DNA of 33,040 nt, from NCBI GenBank assembly GCA_903847405.1, contig CAINDP010000130.1, positions 1 to 33,040 of the forward strand. Direction: 5' to 3'. Position 1 is the first letter of the stretch, and each line of letters starts with the position of its first letter. Shown piece after piece: positions 10,632 through 18,497 of this stretch. The DNA is from an uncultured Myxococcales bacterium. GTDB lineage: Bacteria; Myxococcota_A; UBA9042; DTJE01. A program made the position numbers and the translations under genes. The notes under the pieces were generated by a model. It did not search any database, was not told the origin of the DNA, and worked only from the letters and a program-made list of their open reading frames with translations.

Positions 10632-12872
10632 TCAGGAGGCACCAAGATCCGGCAGACCGCAAAGGTACGCATGGGCGGCTACCGTATCCAGTTCCCGAGC
10701 CGCGTAGTCCGCCGCCAGCAGTTCCGGGGACAGGAACAGGTCGTACTTGTTGATGGCCAGGTTGCAGACTGCCGCCGCGAGTCTTTGTGGATCAGCCTGA
10801 CCCGCTTCGCGCAGGTCCCGTAAGTGCTCGATCAAGGAATCCCGCGTGGTGTTGGCGACGGAAAGAGTGAGTCCCGAACGCGCGACCCGTAGTCCCCTCT
10901 GGGTCAATTGGACTTGGAGCGTGTTGACGACACGGTCACCCGTCCAGCAGAAGCAGAGGACTTCGCGCCCGTATGGAAGGATGCTGGCTTCTGCCAGGCC
11001 GAAGCGCCTGAAACTGTCGCGACCTTCCTTCAGCAGTTCCAAAGCCCGCTTGTCGAGGTATTCCGGCTCGGATTCCTCCTGATACACCAGGAACATCTCC
11101 CGCCGCACCCTATCGTGCACCTGGGCCACTGAACCGGAAAACAGAGGGACCTTTCCGCCCGGGGACGGCACCAGGTAGATCACTTTCTGCTGTTCGTCGA
11201 TCGATTGGACCATCCAGCGTCGGCCCCCGAAGATGATGTGCATCTCAGGCTGCAGAGGCTGAGTGACAGGCAAGGTTCCTATGGTCCTTCCCTGTTGGAC
11301 CAACCGGTATTCGTCGGGGGTCACGAAGACCGAGTAGAAGGAGTAATGATTCACCAGACGTTCACCCCGAACGCCAAGGACGAGAAGTCCTTCCTGGGTC
11401 TGGATGATCAGGTCGTGCTTGCCCATCCCTTTCAGAAGTGACACGAACATCGAGGAGTCGACATCGCGGAATGGGCCGGTCCGGCAGAGTGCGTCAAAGG
11501 CGCTTGCGGCCGTGATTCCGCCTCTCTCGGCGACCAGCGACAACACCTGTTGCAGCAGCGTGGACAGGTGCAGCATGCCAACCGACGGCGGTTCGTACCA
11601 GCGGCCCAACAGCAGTCGAACCATGGCGACCGACTGGCATAACTGGACTCGAAGAGCGTCCTGGGGCGCGACGTCCTGATTCAGTTCGAGTTCGCCAATA
11701 TAGAACCGAAGGATCGCAGGTTCCCCCCGACGACCCGATCGCCCGAGGCGCTGGCGAAGGCTGGCGACTGAGGGCGGGGGGCCAACCTGGGCGACGCTCT
11801 TGACGCTTCCAATGTCGATCCCCAGTTCCAGGGTCGTCGTGCAAACCACGGTGTTGGGCCGGGTCCCATCCTTGAGAGCCCGTTCGGCATCCTCCCGGTA
11901 TTCCTTGGCCAGGCTGCCATGGTGTGCCCAGAACTCCTGGGGCAGATGGCTCTCCTCGCACAGGCGCCGCAGGCGATCGGCATACATCTCGACATTGCGA
12001 CGCGAGTTTGCGAAGACGAGGTTCTTTGAACCGCGCAGCGTGACGAAGAGGTGCTCCGCGATAGCAATCTCGTCTTCGTCTGAATCCTCTTCCTCGACAT
12101 CCTCGGGATTGTCGGGCTTCGGCACGAGCCGCGGGGCGCCCTTCCGAAATCCTCGCAGGAGCATCTTCAGTTCGTGGGAGGTGCTGGTCGAGGAAATGAC
12201 GAGGACCCCGGATCCATCGCCCGGACGGAGGAACTCCGCGGCCAGCGACATGTCACCCAGGGTAGCGCTCAGGGCGATCCGAGGAATCCGTCTGCCCGCC
12301 GCCCGGTCCACGCGGTGAAGCAAGCTCTGAAGGTGGCGGCCTCGCTCCGCGCCGATGAACGCGTGCAATTCGTCCACCACCACGAACTCCAGACCGTTCA
12401 GCACGCGGGGCATCTGCGTGCCCCTCAGCACGAAGAGGGCCTCCAGAGATTCGGGTGTAATCAGCAAAACACCAGAAGGATGCTCCAGGAGTTTCTTCTT
12501 TTCGGAAGCCGATGCGTCCCCGTGCCACCGGTGCACCGGGATATCCAGTCGCTGTCCGAGGTCCGACAATCGGTCGAACTGGTCGTTGATGAGAGCCTTC
12601 AAGGGGCTCACGTAGAGAACGCGCACACTGCCGGAAGGGTGCTCCGCGACCCTTGTCAGGATCGGCAGGAACGCCGCCTCCGTCTTTCCACCGGCCGTCG
12701 CGGCGGTAATGATGACGTCGCGGTCGCCCTCAAGGATCGGCGAGGCGGCCTCCTCCTGAACCTCGTGGAACTCCGTCCAGCCACGCTCCCAGATCCACCG
12801 CTGAATCACAGGGTGCAGGCGCTCAAACGCAGAACTGCGCGGAGCTTCGCCGTCAGAGTTTGAAGGAGGCAA
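10632..12872 (-). CDS. sngC: SngC-like DEAD/DEAH helicase (Lhr/BrxHI type) of a Shango-like system
   Basis: A 746-residue superfamily 2 helicase. Motif I is TAGGKTEA (GGKT 61-64), motif II DELH (167-170), motif III SAT (202-204) and motif VI QRLGRSGRR (374-382), the Lhr-type form. An acidic insert lies at about 256-268, and the C-terminal half is a family-specific extension. The start is TTG at 12872, preceded by GGAGG six bases away; no ATG fits. The gene begins inside the ATPase gene (20-base overlap), implying coupled translation. In Shango and in the related BrxD/BrxHI pair of type 2 BREX, such a helicase works with the neighbouring ATPase against phage. The DNA-translocase role is inferred from the family. 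Confidence 0.87.
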   Translation of the reverse strand: MPPSNSDGEAPRSSAFERLHPVIQRWIWERGWTEFHEVQEEAASPILEGDRDVIITAATAGGKTEAAFLPILTRVAEHPSGSVRVLYVSPLKALINDQFDRLSDLGQRLDIPVHRWHGDASASEKKKLLEHPSGVLLITPESLEALFVLRGTQMPRVLNGLEFVVVDELHAFIGAERGRHLQSLLHRVDRAAGRRIPRIALSATLGDMSLAAEFLRPGDGSGVLVISSTSTSHELKMLLRGFRKGAPRLVPKPDNPEDVEEEDSDEDEIAIAEHLFVTLRGSKNLVFANSRRNVEMYADRLRRLCEESHLPQEFWAHHGSLAKEYREDAERALKDGTRPNTVVCTTTLELGIDIGSVKSVAQVGPPPSVASLRQRLGRSGRRGEPAILRFYIGELELNQDVAPQDALRVQLCQSVAMVRLLLGRWYEPPSVGMLHLSTLLQQVLSLVAERGGITAASAFDALCRTGPFRDVDSSMFVSLLKGMGKHDLIIQTQEGLLVLGVRGERLVNHYSFYSVFVTPDEYRLVQQGRTIGTLPVTQPLQPEMHIIFGGRRWMVQSIDEQQKVIYLVPSPGGKVPLFSGSVAQVHDRVRREMFLVYQEESEPEYLDKRALELLKEGRDSFRRFGLAEASILPYGREVLCFCWTGDRVVNTLQVQLTQRGLRVARSGLTLSVANTTRDSLIEHLRDLREAGQADPQRLAAAVCNLAINKYDLFLSPELLAADYAARELDTVAAHAYLCGLPDLGAS

Positions 12873-14214
12873 GCTCGTCCTCCTGTTTCGGTGACGCGGG
12901 ATTCGTGTTGCTGACAGTCAGGGGCGGCGTCGCGTCATCATCCTCGATCCACCCGGCCTGTTGTCCACCCTCATCCTTCACGACATCGACCTTCTGGATC
13001 ACGTCCGACCAGAGGACGCCCGGGTTCTGCTCCAGAACGGCCAGCAGGTTCACGAACGCCGTGATGGTCGTGCGGGGGGTGCGGAAATAGGCTTCGCCGA
13101 TGCGTTTTGAACAGTGCGCCATGAAGGCCTGGAGTCCTTCATCCGGGACGAGGTAGGAGGCCGAATCGCCCGCGGCATACACGTGGCGGAGCTTTCCGAG
13201 GAGGACGTAGAAATCCTCCGGGCTCAGGTTCGCCAGGCGAAGAACCGGTCCGGTGTAGTCGGCCAGTCCGCCTACCGCGAAGGTGTTCTCGGCAAGCCGC
13301 GACTGCAGGGCGGCGTAACTGTAAAGTCCCCGACGAGTGTCGAGCAGGAAATCCGGCGTGCCGCCCAGAATGAACCCGAGCCCAACCGCCGTGCCCTGAA
13401 GACTGTCGTTCAGAATGCGGAGGATCTGCTCGTAGTTGGCGTTCCGGGCCTGCGTGTTGGCGAGCTTGTAAAGGTTCACCAACTCATCGAGGCAGACCAG
13501 CAGGCCGCTGTAACCTGCAAGCCGGACGAGACGGGACAGGAGCTTGAGTTGGTCGTACACGTTCGAGTCATCAATGATCGTTCGGACACCCAGGGCTGCC
13601 CGAGCATCGGTGCGAGTCGTGAACTCCCCACGGAGCCAACGGATGGCGTTTCCTTTCAGCGTCTCGTCGCCTGTGTCGTGGCCACGCCAGTACGCCGCGA
13701 TCACTTCCGCGAAGTCATACCCGCCCACCATTTCAGAAAGCTGGGCCAGACGCTCGCGAATCACCGCGTCTGCATTCACGCCGCGCTCCCGCGCATCGGC
13801 GGCTGCCGAGGAGACGAATCGCTCCACGATGCTGGGCAGCGCGCCACCATCCGGCTTGGTGCGCGTCGAGATGTTCCGCATCAATTCGGCATAGAGGGCT
13901 CGGGCCTGTCCACCCGTGGCCTGGAGGCGGCGATCCGGCGTGAGATCGGCGTGGGCCGTGACGAGTTTCTTCTCCAGGGCGACCGAACGAACCACGTTCA
14001 GGAAGAAGGTCTTTCCAGACCCGTACTCCCCGATTACGAAGCGGATCCCGGATCCTCCGTCCGTGATCCGTTCGAGGTCACGCAGGAGCGCCTTGACCTC
14101 CTCCACACGCCCGACCTGGACCAGGTGGAGCCCCAGTCGCGGGACCACGCCGGCCCGCAGGGATTGGAGGATCGCGTCTCGGTCCTTCGGACGGATCGGG
14201 GTCGCCATGTTCAT
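12853..14214 (-). CDS. sngB: SngB-like DUF2791 P-loop ATPase (BrxD-like) of a Shango-like system
   Basis: A 453-residue ATPase of the BREX-system ATP-binding family (DUF2791). Walker A is GEYGSGKT (62-69). Walker B is LLVCLDE (238-244), with D243/E244 in place. The C-terminal part contains the family segment LRLANLSPEDFYVLLGKL. The ATG at 14214 is chosen because GGAG lies eight bases upstream and the start overlaps the sngA stop by 4 bases (ATGA); a second ATG two codons on is possible. Its 3' end overlaps the helicase start. Homologues include BrxD of type 2 BREX, but no pglX or pglZ gene is present here. Its job is probably an ATP-driven loader or regulator for the helicase (inference). Confidence 0.88.
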   Translation of the reverse strand: MNMATPIRPKDRDAILQSLRAGVVPRLGLHLVQVGRVEEVKALLRDLERITDGGSGIRFVIGEYGSGKTFFLNVVRSVALEKKLVTAHADLTPDRRLQATGGQARALYAELMRNISTRTKPDGGALPSIVERFVSSAAADARERGVNADAVIRERLAQLSEMVGGYDFAEVIAAYWRGHDTGDETLKGNAIRWLRGEFTTRTDARAALGVRTIIDDSNVYDQLKLLSRLVRLAGYSGLLVCLDELVNLYKLANTQARNANYEQILRILNDSLQGTAVGLGFILGGTPDFLLDTRRGLYSYAALQSRLAENTFAVGGLADYTGPVLRLANLSPEDFYVLLGKLRHVYAAGDSASYLVPDEGLQAFMAHCSKRIGEAYFRTPRTTITAFVNLLAVLEQNPGVLWSDVIQKVDVVKDEGGQQAGWIEDDDATPPLTVSNTNPASPKQEDELASFKL

Positions 14215-16634
14215 GCTTGAATCTCCTTCGCGAGTTCCTGGTTCACCTCGATGGGATCCTCGCCTTCGATCAAGGCGGATTCGTGGCACTCAAACACTGC
14301 GTCGTTGATGGTTTCGATGGCTCCGTCCGGGAGCAGATGATGCTGCTGGCAAAGACCTTCCCACTCCGCCCGGCTCCATACCTGCCGCCCAAGAAGTTCC
14401 CTCAAGGCAGCGGAATGCGAACTATCGAGTCCTAGCAGCGTCGAGCCAGCCGGTTCGGTCACAGGCAGGGGCGTCGTCACGTCCTCCTGCTCCACGAAGA
14501 TCTGGGACAACAGCGCCGACACGGCAATGGACTCGGCGATCTTCGCCTCGACGCGACGCATGTCGAGCACGAACTCCTGCGGCTTTTCGGCCTTCGTGGA
14601 AGGGGGCGGAATCCGGAACCCGGTCTTGGCATTCGCGGTCTGAACCGTGACCGGTTCCAACGGTGCAGCAGGCATCGCCAATGTTGGAACGCCTGCGGTG
14701 AAGGCGTGAATCCGGCCGTACACTTCGCTGGGGTCCAGGCCGAGAAGGGTGAAGGACTTCGTCAGCGCCGTCACTTCGTTCTTGGAGATCCTTCCGTCGG
14801 CGCCTGCAACTGCGACCAGGAAATCGGCCACGATCGTCCGCTGGCCAGGGGCCAATTGTTCAAGTCGCTTCTTGAGACTGGTCAGGCCGGGAGGGTTGGA
14901 CAGCAGCCACCGTAGATGAGCGGTCATTCGGACCCGCTCTGCGGGATTGAGGTTCAAGGACGATTCCAGGTGATGCTGGAGCAATTGCTCCTCCTCCCGG
15001 GATACTTCGTCGGCTCCGGCAATCGATGACCCCAGATTCATGAGGAGCGATGCCGCCGCGTACTCGGGGGACGCCGCCGTAGGGGAGTCCTTGGGCAACT
15101 TGAAAAGCACGACCTGGCCGCCAGGGTTCGGGACCGGTCCTTCGAATCTCACGTCCGGCTCGACGCCGCAGCCCAGTTTCTGAAGGAACTGGGTCATGCC
15201 GACGACTTCCGCCTTGGTGGGCTTCGTCGGATTCGTCAGCGGCCACTTCGCAAGCAACTCGGCGCTGGGCAGCAGGCAGGATTCCTGCCCGACAAACTGC
15301 AGGTCCAGCCAGGCGCGAAGATTCTTCACATCCCCTCGATCCCGGGTAACCAGGACTTCGGCCGGCAACAATGCAAGACCCGGGAGCACCGGGGCTCCTT
15401 CTGAATTTCGTCCCAGCCATCGACTGTAGGGTTCGATCTCGGACACACATTGCTCCAGGATCACTCGCAACTTGCTTGCCGCAGAGCGTTGGGTCGTCAC
15501 GTCCGGAATGTCCCCGAGGCTGAAACGGAACTCCCCCCGGTTCATGAACGATGCGCTTGCCGGCGCATACTTGGCGAATAGATTGGTCTTGTTGGGCTTC
15601 AGGAGGAGCCCTTCCGGATACGCGTCCTGATATCGCGCCAGGAACAACTCGCGAACTTCTTCGGGACACCGCTGGGCCGGGGTGCGCAGGGCGGTCTCCG
15701 GGTTGTTCCATGCCCATGAGAAGGCCCAGTCGGCCGGGATGGGCCTTCCCTCCTTCGAGAAGCAACCCAACGCAATCTTGACGTCGAGCGGCACTTCCCA
15801 CGACTTCTCGAAGTCCCGAGGCGCCTGCAGATTGGCCTGGTTCCTAGCATGCTCAAGGGCTCGGCACGCCGCGATGAAAGACGCGGAATAGCCTTGGAAG
15901 GAACCGCTGGATCGATAGATCCCGTGGAGTCTCTCGACCTCCTCCCGGATGGACTGGAGTTCCGCCAGGACAGCGGGATCCTTCGGCAGATCGTGCAGGA
16001 CCCGGCGCTCCAATCCGTAGAGGAACAAGAACACATATCCGATGTAGGCTTGCGGATTCTTCCGACCCGTTGAAAGCCATTCCAGGTATGCGGCTCGCCC
16101 CCCGGCCGAGATCGACTCGTACGACGGCCAGTAGCCGATTCCCTCTCCAGAGAGATTCGGGGCAGAGCGACTGACGGAGATCGAAGGCTGGATCAGCGCG
16201 GGTTCTTGCCCGTATCCCGAGGCCGAGGGGAGGCTGTCGCCGAAGTATATCAGACCATCGGGCAGGGAGTACCCTGCGACCGCTACCGGATGCCCTTTCG
16301 GGAGCCAACGAGTTGCTACGGTTTCCTCGGTTCGAGGGGGCAGCCGGGCGGCCGCATTCGTGGGCGGCGGTTGCGACAGATCCGGCTCGGAACGTACCGT
16401 CTTCGGAACTCTGACAGCATCGGAATACCGGGCCGAAGTCGGTGCAGAAGACGCCACGCGCCGGGTTGTGGGGAGGTCCGGCGGAACATCGGGAGCCGAA
16501 CTTGCCTTGAGCGCCTTCACGACAACCCAGATGATGACAGCGAAGATCAGGAGGGCCACCAGAGCCCCGCCGTCAGCGCGCAAGACACCAAGACTGCCTG
16601 GTAGAAGTCCCATCGCCGGTCCAGGGTCGATCAT
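14211..16634 (-). CDS. sngA: SngA-like TerB-N/TerB/TerB-C protein with N-terminal membrane helix
   Basis: An 807-residue protein. Residues ~22-42 form one hydrophobic helix (ALVALLIFAVIIWVVVKAL), followed by a ~120-residue Pro/Ser-rich disordered stretch. The TerB-N domain begins near 165 (YWPSYESIS, YLEWLS, GYVFLFLYGLERR). A TerB-like segment with ADGRISKNEV lies near 590-645. The C terminus is TerB-C, with GAIETINDAV and ending in IEVNQELAKEIQ. These domains are known from tellurium-resistance-linked and DNA-processing loci and from Shango SngA. GGAGGAA precedes the ATG, and the leader from the candidate promoter is about 100 bases. No ter resistance operon accompanies it, so a metal-resistance role is unlikely. 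Confidence 0.88.
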   Translation of the reverse strand: MIDPGPAMGLLPGSLGVLRADGGALVALLIFAVIIWVVVKALKASSAPDVPPDLPTTRRVASSAPTSARYSDAVRVPKTVRSEPDLSQPPPTNAAARLPPRTEETVATRWLPKGHPVAVAGYSLPDGLIYFGDSLPSASGYGQEPALIQPSISVSRSAPNLSGEGIGYWPSYESISAGGRAAYLEWLSTGRKNPQAYIGYVFLFLYGLERRVLHDLPKDPAVLAELQSIREEVERLHGIYRSSGSFQGYSASFIAACRALEHARNQANLQAPRDFEKSWEVPLDVKIALGCFSKEGRPIPADWAFSWAWNNPETALRTPAQRCPEEVRELFLARYQDAYPEGLLLKPNKTNLFAKYAPASASFMNRGEFRFSLGDIPDVTTQRSAASKLRVILEQCVSEIEPYSRWLGRNSEGAPVLPGLALLPAEVLVTRDRGDVKNLRAWLDLQFVGQESCLLPSAELLAKWPLTNPTKPTKAEVVGMTQFLQKLGCGVEPDVRFEGPVPNPGGQVVLFKLPKDSPTAASPEYAAASLLMNLGSSIAGADEVSREEEQLLQHHLESSLNLNPAERVRMTAHLRWLLSNPPGLTSLKKRLEQLAPGQRTIVADFLVAVAGADGRISKNEVTALTKSFTLLGLDPSEVYGRIHAFTAGVPTLAMPAAPLEPVTVQTANAKTGFRIPPPSTKAEKPQEFVLDMRRVEAKIAESIAVSALLSQIFVEQEDVTTPLPVTEPAGSTLLGLDSSHSAALRELLGRQVWSRAEWEGLCQQHHLLPDGAIETINDAVFECHESALIEGEDPIEVNQELAKEIQA

Positions 16635-16739: not shown

Positions 16740-16769
16740 AGTCTAGCCCACCCCCTGGGACAGTATCAA
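16740..16769 (-). promoter_or_regulatory. candidate internal promoter for sngABC
   Basis: On the minus strand TTGATA, an 18-base spacer, then TAGACT. The -35 overlaps the stop codon of the ion-channel gene, and the -10 ends 105 bases before the sngA ATG. The 10-mer GGCTAGACTC around the -10 recurs upstream of the DUF808 gene. Confidence 0.5.
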
Positions 16770-17578
16770 CACGGACCATCGACTTGACCGACTTCCGGTA
16801 GCTTCGCATCTACTCGCGTACTGGATGCCGGATCCGATCCTGGTTTTGAAGGCTGGAGTTCGTTATCTACGGCATGCCCCGGCAGTCGACTCAGGGCCTG
16901 TTCGATGCGATCGAGGCGGGTGTTGATCGACCGCATCTCGCGCAAGACCTCTTGATCGCCGATGAAGTAGTCCGCGACCATCCCGATGAAGGTGCCGAAC
17001 AGGAGAACGCCACCCGCCACCAGAAGCAGGGCAAAGACCTTGCCCTCCAACGTCACCGGAGTAATACCGTCGAAACCCAGGGTGGTAACCGCTACGAGGG
17101 ACCACCAGATCGTGTCACCGATGGTCGCGAAGTTGGCGCTCTCGCCGTGCTCGACATGGTAGATGGCGATGGCTGCCAGCAGAACGAGCGCGATGTTCAA
17201 GATGAAGACGGTCCGAAAAGTGGACACGGCCTTGTCGCGATGAACAAACGAGAAAATGACTCGCCCGGAGCGGGCCAACCGAAGGACCCGCGCAATCCGG
17301 GCCACTCGAGCGATTCGAAGCGGGCCGACGAAGGGGATCGAACCCACCAGGTCAAGCCAGTTCCATGCGATGAACCGCCATTTGACCGGGGCTCTCCAGA
17401 GGCGAAGCCCAAAATCGCCCATGAACAGAAGACAGATGGCGAGGTCGACGAGTTCTGTCACCGAGGCAACTGCAGGCGAGTACTCGATGATGTTCTCGAC
17501 GTACAGTTCACCGACCACATAAATGGACAGGGCGAAGATCAACCATTCGAACCAGGAAAGGCTCTTCTGCGATTCCAT
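16766..17578 (-). CDS. six-helix voltage-gated-type ion channel with non-canonical selectivity filter
   Basis: A 270-residue membrane protein with the Kv-channel plan. Hydrophobic helices lie near 10-30, 42-60 and 70-85. The S4 segment has arginines at every third position (R88, R91, R94, R97, R100, R103). S5 is near 123-141, the pore loop at 150-172 and S6 at 180-205, with a short coiled-coil-like tail (205-232). The filter reads TTLGFDG (165-171) where potassium channels read TTVGYGD, so the second Gly is replaced by Asp. The ATG at 17578 follows a GGGAGG site; the open frame continues upstream into the BRCT gene. It lies 31 bases after the BRCT gene and 131 bases before sngA, inside the defence block. 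The conducted ion is uncertain. Confidence 0.85.
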   Translation of the reverse strand: MESQKSLSWFEWLIFALSIYVVGELYVENIIEYSPAVASVTELVDLAICLLFMGDFGLRLWRAPVKWRFIAWNWLDLVGSIPFVGPLRIARVARIARVLRLARSGRVIFSFVHRDKAVSTFRTVFILNIALVLLAAIAIYHVEHGESANFATIGDTIWWSLVAVTTLGFDGITPVTLEGKVFALLLVAGGVLLFGTFIGMVADYFIGDQEVLREMRSINTRLDRIEQALSRLPGHAVDNELQPSKPGSDPASSTRVDAKLPEVGQVDGPC

Positions 17579-17609: not shown

Positions 17610-18497
17610 TCACAGGGCGGCAAGAAAGTCGCGTTCCCGAATGATGAGCGTCGTGGCGCCCACCTTGCGATTTTCGATGACGGTCTCGATCTTCCGTCCG
17701 TAGGCCGCATACATCCACGCCGGGTTCGACAGGCCACCGATGACCAGGTAGTCCAGCGAGCGCGAAACGCGGTCGACCGGTATTCCGCCCCGCTCGGAGA
17801 CCATCCCATGGAGGACCGCGCGAGCGGCGGTCTTGGCCTGCCCGGTGAAACAGAACGTGTGTCCGGACATCGACACCGGCCCAGAATCGCAGACGCTATC
17901 CAGGGTGCTGTAAATGGGAGCTCGACTGGCGGCGTGCTCGTTCACGGGGGCGTCATGGAGCACGTAGTCGTGCTGGACCACGCCACCATAGTCCAGGCAG
18001 AAGTCGAGAATCTCCTGCTGTTCCTCAGGATCAACCCGGCCATCCGCGAGAACCCGGTCCACCATTTCGTGAACAAGGTTGAACGGCCAGACCCCGCGAA
18101 ACGCCTCGTAGTCCGCGAGCCAATCCTTGAGGTCAACCACTTCCTGCCTATTGATGACACCATCCACTGCGATCCCGTGGAGCACGCCGTGCAGGCGGCG
18201 GATGGCATCTCTCGACGTGAGCGCACCGGTCGAGGTCGGGTTGCCGAACTGGCAGCACCAATCCAGCAACTCCTCGCGCGGATCCCCGTCCGTGGCACCG
18301 AGCGTCATCTGGCGCAAGGTTTCGTGCAGCGAACTGAAAGGAAAGGTCTCAAGCAGGTACTCATGGGTCGCCACCCACTCGGAAAGCGCTCTCAGTTCAC
18401 CGTCCGTCAGCAGGTAGTCCAGCGCTACCCCGGCGGCGATTCCCCGGAGCATCTCGATCTCGCGCGCCACCTCAGTGACCCGACCACTTTCCGACAT
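17610..18497 (-). CDS. BRCT-domain protein with duplicated DG-containing helical (TerB-like) repeats
   Basis: A 295-residue protein. Residues ~18-88 and ~103-172 are two copies of one helical module: GIAAGVALDYLLTDGEL and WPF/FPF-type segments in the first match HGIAVDGVINRQEV and WPFNLVHEM in the second. Each resembles small acidic TerB/EF-hand-like units. Residues ~207-295 form a BRCT domain of the DNA-ligase/RFC1 type (HTFCFTGQ, SLDYLVIGG, YGRKIETV, ending in ERDFLAAL). BRCT domains of this class bind DNA ends or 5' phosphates, so a DNA-damage-sensing role in the block is plausible inference. The ATG has only a weak GGGG ribosome site. It is the first gene of the minus-strand block, 26 bases downstream of a TATTCT -10-like element. 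Confidence 0.85.
   Translation of the reverse strand: MSESGRVTEVAREIEMLRGIAAGVALDYLLTDGELRALSEWVATHEYLLETFPFSSLHETLRQMTLGATDGDPREELLDWCCQFGNPTSTGALTSRDAIRRLHGVLHGIAVDGVINRQEVVDLKDWLADYEAFRGVWPFNLVHEMVDRVLADGRVDPEEQQEILDFCLDYGGVVQHDYVLHDAPVNEHAASRAPIYSTLDSVCDSGPVSMSGHTFCFTGQAKTAARAVLHGMVSERGGIPVDRVSRSLDYLVIGGLSNPAWMYAAYGRKIETVIENRKVGATTLIIRERDFLAAL

What the first reader, a model, noticed from the sequence alone, without database searches (positions are those of the whole stretch)
17065..17085. Channel selectivity filter TTLGFDG instead of TTVGYGD
Direct translation gives AVTTLGFDGITPVT: the canonical Gly-Asp after the aromatic residue is swapped to Asp-Gly, placing an acidic side chain in the filter. 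All other parts (six-Arg S4, pore helix, ITPVT after the filter) are intact, so this is not a decayed gene. It may change ion selectivity.
Basis: seen in the sequence. Interest (0 to 1): 0.65.

Follow-up and report, generated by a model that had tools for sequence, protein, structure and literature searches.

The report
Kv-type channel with GFDG selectivity filter
A bacterial voltage-gated-type ion channel gene really does carry a selectivity filter in which two near-invariant residues are swapped (GFDG for GYGD); this is very rare and its relatives are normal, so it is probably a one-off natural variant that no longer passes only potassium, and it is not a standard part of the neighbouring Shango defence system.

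Summary
Window 16766-17578 (-) encodes an intact 270-residue six-helix channel (Ion_trans, E 1.5e-20; KvAP-like) with filter TTLGFDGITP, aligned without gaps to TTVGYGDxxP; the true span is 17066-17086. The Asp/Gly swap is not conserved. Relatives at 34-38% identity carry TTVGYGD, and 65 of 78 sampled homologues are canonical. A pattern scan of 84,980 species genomes found one other such channel (Tissierellaceae, TTVGYDG), whose 48-56%-identical relatives are canonical; common ancestry of the two swaps is rejected. The nearest kin by tree, a gene fragment in the same class, has another odd filter (GFAQD). The suspected Shango link fails: 17 Shango loci sampled in the phylum and four on plasmids lack a channel. 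The channel instead sits 31 bp after a TerB-like/BRCT gene. That gene family adjoins Kv channels in two viral contigs, Shango on one plasmid, and the exclusion gene glo in phage K139. Most likely a functional tetrameric channel that has lost K+ selectivity, like NaK, NirBac and NaKTs, possibly a membrane effector of a mobile defence-type module. Selectivity itself is inference. New variant of a known kind.

The parts
16766..17578 (-). 6TM Kv-type ion channel gene, 270 aa, ATG at 17578 with GGAGG upstream
   Evidence: PF00520 E 1.5e-20 and PF07885 E 8.5e-11; PDB Kv matches; AF2 model
17066..17086 (-). selectivity filter TTLGFDG (canonical TTVGYGD)
   Evidence: direct translation and ungapped alignment
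17261..17317 (-). S4 voltage-sensor segment RIARVARIARVLRLARSGR, seven Arg at every third residue (residues 88-106)
   Evidence: direct translation; Arg columns conserved in relatives
17610..18497 (-). TerB-like/BRCT protein gene, 31 bp upstream of the channel
   Evidence: weak LigA BRCT-region match; homologues annotated as BRCT protein; homologues beside Kv channels. The TerB resemblance is by eye, Pfam finds none
14211..16634 (-). SngA of Shango (context, not part of the channel unit)
   Evidence: PADLOC SngA E 8e-85
12853..14289 (-). SngB of Shango (context)
   Evidence: PADLOC SngB E 9e-184
10632..12872 (-). SngC of Shango (context)
   Evidence: PADLOC SngC E 7e-281

Best explanation
The gene encodes an intact tetrameric 6TM channel of the prokaryotic Kv type in which the outer half of the K+ filter has been remodelled by a Gly-to-Asp and Asp-to-Gly swap. 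Shown: the sequence, the fold family, the isolated and independent origin of the swap, and the neighbourhood. Inferred: the inner half (TTLG, sites S3/S4) still forms; Asp at the position of KcsA Gly79 distorts sites S1/S0 and puts a ring of four carboxylates near the outer mouth; the pore therefore passes monovalent cations with little K+ preference and may bind or be blocked by Ca2+. Opening would still be controlled by the voltage sensor and perhaps by the adjacent TerB-like/BRCT protein. A depolarising membrane effector of a mobile exclusion or defence-type module fits the neighbourhood but is untested.
For: Intact frame, sensor, pore helix and S6. Gly and Asp are near-invariant in relatives. 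Natural non-canonical filters tested elsewhere gave non-selective channels: NirBac, NaKTs, NaK; second-Gly changes are reported to abolish K+ selectivity or function. A second lineage reached the same swap independently. TerB-like/BRCT genes lie beside Kv channels in L158 and L160 and beside glo in K139.
Against: No measurement of selectivity. The precedents put the acidic residue at the aromatic position (NaK) or replace the filter more widely, so none matches exactly. The swap is not conserved and the closest kin is a likely pseudogene fragment, which also fits loss of function. Channel neighbours of TerB-like/BRCT genes are canonical, so the module idea does not need the swap.
Confidence: 0.5

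Rival explanations
1. The channel remains K+-selective: Asp adopts the left-handed backbone that the second filter Gly normally takes and Gly replaces the outer Asp, so the carbonyl sites survive with altered conductance or inactivation.
For: Filter length, TTLG and aromatic residue are kept. Asp and Asn tolerate left-handed backbone better than other non-Gly residues, and Kir6 channels carry Gly at the last position (own knowledge). The exchange arose twice.
Against: Second-Gly replacements are reported to abolish K+ selectivity or function.
Confidence: 0.2
2. The pore is non-conducting or decaying: the filter has drifted after loss of selection, or the protein survives only as a voltage-sensing membrane partner.
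For: Lone variant; close kin L002 is a fragment with another aberrant filter; congeners lack the gene.
Against: All other parts are intact with no stop or frameshift; two matched changes at adjacent sites are an odd form of decay, and they recur in an unrelated intact gene.
Confidence: 0.2
3. Sequencing or assembly error in this contig.
For: Single draft-genome copy and no close homologue to check against.
Against: At least two independent base errors in adjacent codons without a frameshift would be needed (codons GAC GGT); an independent GYDG channel exists.
Confidence: 0.07

Closest known systems
KvAP-type prokaryotic voltage-gated K+ channels (PDB 6uwm/1orq; pore also like Lmo2059, PDB 4h33)
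   Same: 6TM layout, Arg-rich S4, pore helix WW, Thr-Thr before the filter, profile E 6e-37 to KvAP
   Different: filter TLGFDG in place of TVGYGD
NaK non-selective channel (TVGDGN)
   Same: acidic residue inside the filter of a K+-channel-family protein
   Different: NaK has Asp at the aromatic position and is 2TM; here Asp is one place later and the aromatic residue is kept
NirBac and NaKTs channels
   Same: naturally occurring rare non-canonical filters in otherwise ordinary K+-channel relatives; tested members are non-selective
   Different: filters are unrelated in sequence (TTGTD in NirBac2.1, LPMGNGPLSP in NaKTs) and the proteins are Kir-type or 2TM
Protozoan GYX channel homologues
   Same: second Gly of the GYG motif replaced in nature
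   Different: GYSD/E or GYRD keep the outer acidic residue; here Asp and Gly are exchanged
Tissierellaceae channel L075 (TTVGYDG)
   Same: the same Asp-Gly exchange in an intact 6TM channel
   Different: 26% identical overall in alignment A3 and of separate origin
Shango (SngABC)
   Same: adjacent on the same strand, 131 bp away
   Different: no channel in the 21 other Shango loci inspected

Membership tests
voltage-gated-type ion channel superfamily (PF00520) | Ion_trans domain with S1-S6 and Arg-rich S4 | tested here: met
   73.9 bits against a cut-off of 25; helices and S4
K+-selective channels | TxGYG/TxGFG signature followed by Asp/Asn | tested here: not met
   TLGFDG
K+-selective channels | measured K+ over Na+ selectivity | not testable with these tools
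   needs flux or electrophysiology
NaK/CNG-type non-selective filters | acidic residue directly after TVG/TIG, at the aromatic position | tested here: not met
   Phe is kept; Asp is one place later
conserved GFDG subfamily | homologues share the Asp-Gly swap by descent | tested here: not met
   only L075 shares it, with separate origin; relatives canonical
Shango system | channel present as a regular component | tested here: not met
   17 phylum loci and four plasmid loci without a channel; some phylum loci have short upstream flanks
TerB-like/BRCT plus Kv channel pair | TerB-like/BRCT gene adjacent to a Kv-type channel gene in other elements | tested here: inconclusive
   adjacent in L158 and within about 1 kb in L160, but two other viral contigs and several phages have it with other neighbours
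TerB-like/BRCT plus Kv channel pair | anti-phage activity | not testable with these tools
   needs plaque assays

The most novel reading that the evidence does not exclude
The TerB-like/BRCT protein and a Kv-type channel form a mobile two-gene exclusion or defence module, and in this copy the filter has been remodelled so that the channel acts as a depolarising, non-K+-selective membrane effector beside Shango.
Probability: 0.15. Interest if true: 0.75.

Novelty: new variant of a known kind. Interest (0 to 1): 0.42.

Why it matters
The second Gly of GYG and the following Asp are among the most conserved residues in channels, and natural exceptions are good tests of how the filter sets selectivity. 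Two intact, distantly related bacterial channels with the same Asp-Gly exchange, each with canonical relatives as controls, make that directly testable by expression and flux assays. The recurring TerB-like/BRCT neighbour also gives a lead on what some prokaryotic Kv channels do in mobile elements.

Tried and rejected
Conserved GFDG family: rejected. Channel as a Shango part: rejected. Common origin with the Tissierellaceae GYDG channel: rejected. Alignment shift or indel in place of a true swap: rejected, equal spacing to the conserved Pro. Close homologues by exact peptide words in genome contigs: none (this only reaches very near relatives). Plasmid and phage records with the query channel: none at 1e-5. 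The two viral-contig hits of the filter pattern are not channels. Literature search for GFDG or GYDG filters: no paper in the held library. RNA families and tRNAs nearby: none. Foldseek finds Kv folds but global TM-scores are low because the placement of sensor against pore in the monomer model is uncertain. Purifying selection on the gene could not be tested for want of close homologues.

Full report
The observation. Translation of the minus strand confirms AVTTLGFDGITPVT inside an open reading frame. The most likely start is ATG at 17578, preceded by GGAGG, giving 270 residues ending at 16766. The seven filter codons lie at 17066-17086. The protein matches Ion_trans (PF00520, E 1.5e-20) and Ion_trans_2. 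Single-sequence search finds Kv4, Shaker and Kv2 chains, and a family profile finds KvAP first (6uwm, E 6e-37). S4 has seven Arg at every third position. AlphaFold2 with an alignment of 34 sequences gives the expected helices, a pore helix at 153-164 and a long S6 running into a C-terminal helix to residue 231, with high local confidence around the filter. The genome has one copy.

Is the swap real and is it shared? The distance from Thr-Thr to the conserved Pro is the same as in TTVGYGDxxP, so Gly-Asp has become Asp-Gly without an indel. Relatives were sampled in 379 genomes of the phylum and about 400 each of two further phyla, reached through a Spongiibacteraceae and a Chitinophagales genome. 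The best are 34-38% identical and have TTVGYGD. Of 78 aligned homologues, 64 fit [ST]x[VI]G[YF]GD in the alignment and L149, cut short there, reads canonical; the other 13 are exceptions. Congeners G001 and G002 have no homologue at the thresholds used. A scan of 84,980 species genomes for TT-x-G-[FY]-D-G-x-x-P returned 22 stretches, of which one is a channel: L075, a 263-residue Tissierellaceae protein with TTVGYDGISP. The pattern demands Thr-Thr and the Pro, so looser variants could be missed, and the source genome itself may be left out. L075's relatives at 56% and 48% identity are canonical. A tree built without the filter columns separates the two DG channels, and holding them together costs 86 log-likelihood units (AU p 2e-38). 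In the 44-row tree the window channel pairs with L002 (99/93), a fragment from the same class with filter TTLGFAQDIHP and no recognisable voltage sensor upstream, probably a pseudogene; its branch is long, so the pairing is unsure. In the 77-row tree without L002 the window channel is sister to a clade of 41 rows, two of them also off-canonical (L129, L152) and the rest canonical. The swap is therefore a rare, independently arisen, unconserved variant and not a family trait.

Does it belong to Shango? Downstream genes are clear SngA, SngB and SngC. Seventeen other SngB loci in the phylum were fetched with flanks. None has a channel or the TerB-like/BRCT gene by tblastn, nor a channel by filter motif, though several have only short flanks upstream of SngA. 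Four annotated plasmid Shango loci also lack one. The gap between channel and SngA is 131 bp with a weak promoter-like site.

What does it sit with? Thirty-one bases upstream is a 295-residue protein with a weak BRCT resemblance at its C terminus and repeats that resemble TerB by eye. Pfam recognises neither in this copy but recognises BRCT in its homologues. This family occurs directly before a canonical Kv channel in IMG/VR contig L158, between a phage repressor-type gene and an integrase, and near another in L160. A weaker case is L300, where a short TerB-like frame immediately precedes a canonical channel. In Vibrio phage K139 the homologue orf2 (58.6% identical to the L158 protein) lies between cI and glo; glo is reported to act in phage exclusion (PMC8537503). 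In Pseudomonas elements it lies beside a BamE-like gene, and on a Hymenobacter plasmid directly after SngC. Two further viral contigs have it without a channel. So the TerB-like/BRCT gene is an accessory of lysogeny and defence regions with changing neighbours, and the channel is one of them.

Mechanism. From established K+-channel structure (own knowledge), the position of KcsA Gly79 forms sites S1 and S0 with a left-handed backbone, and Asp80 lies just outside. Putting Asp at 79 and Gly at 80 keeps TTLG and the aromatic residue but disturbs the outer half and adds four carboxylates at the mouth. NaK (two sites left, non-selective; PMC9822992), NirBac (non-selective; PMC4607889) and NaKTs (non-selective, Ca2+ in the filter; PMC5052707) show what natural departures do. 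A survey of protozoan channels notes that second-Gly changes eliminate selectivity and function and that GYX proteins exist in some prokaryotes with unknown function (PMC3283738). The most likely reading is a voltage-sensitive cation channel with little K+ selectivity, at about 0.5; a still K+-selective pore and a dead pore each get about 0.2.

Verdict. It is a new variant of a known kind: a natural non-canonical filter in a K+-channel family. Function is untested.

Noticed in passing
window 17610-18497; L158 1066-1956; L160 3694-4317; L308 2194-3099; L309 4986-5639: A TerB-like/BRCT gene family recurs beside phage repressors, Kv channels, the exclusion gene glo (K139), BamE-like genes and a Shango operon, with changing partners; possibly a sensor with interchangeable effectors.
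   Followed up: partly
L055 and L057 (same phylum): Channel relatives whose filter region reads LIAGEPIGIEP or LIAGEPVGTTP, a distinct well-supported clade with no TVGYG at all.
   Followed up: no
L043, L045, L047, L049, L053 (same phylum): A clade of channel relatives with VTGGFGDIxNP, altered before the filter and one residue longer after it.
   Followed up: no
L129 (match 1468-2127, -) and L152 (match 1540-2178, -): Two further intact-looking relatives in the window channel's wider clade with lost filters (MNAKITIAS and TILGMDYCSPP).
   Followed up: no
L025 2379-2804: Channel fragment with filter TTLGFAQDIHP and no voltage sensor upstream, likely a pseudogene.
   Followed up: partly
window 14211-16634: SngA here begins with a hydrophobic stretch that looks like a membrane anchor (residues about 23-42), by eye only.
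   Followed up: no
L304 4956-7610: In a prophage-like contig the TerB-like/BRCT gene precedes two genes that look like a three-Cys-motif partner protein and a DUF5131-type protein (naming from memory).
   Followed up: no
L160 2750-3658: A gene on the opposite strand, resembling a type I restriction N-terminal domain protein by eye, lies between the channel and the TerB-like/BRCT gene.
   Followed up: no
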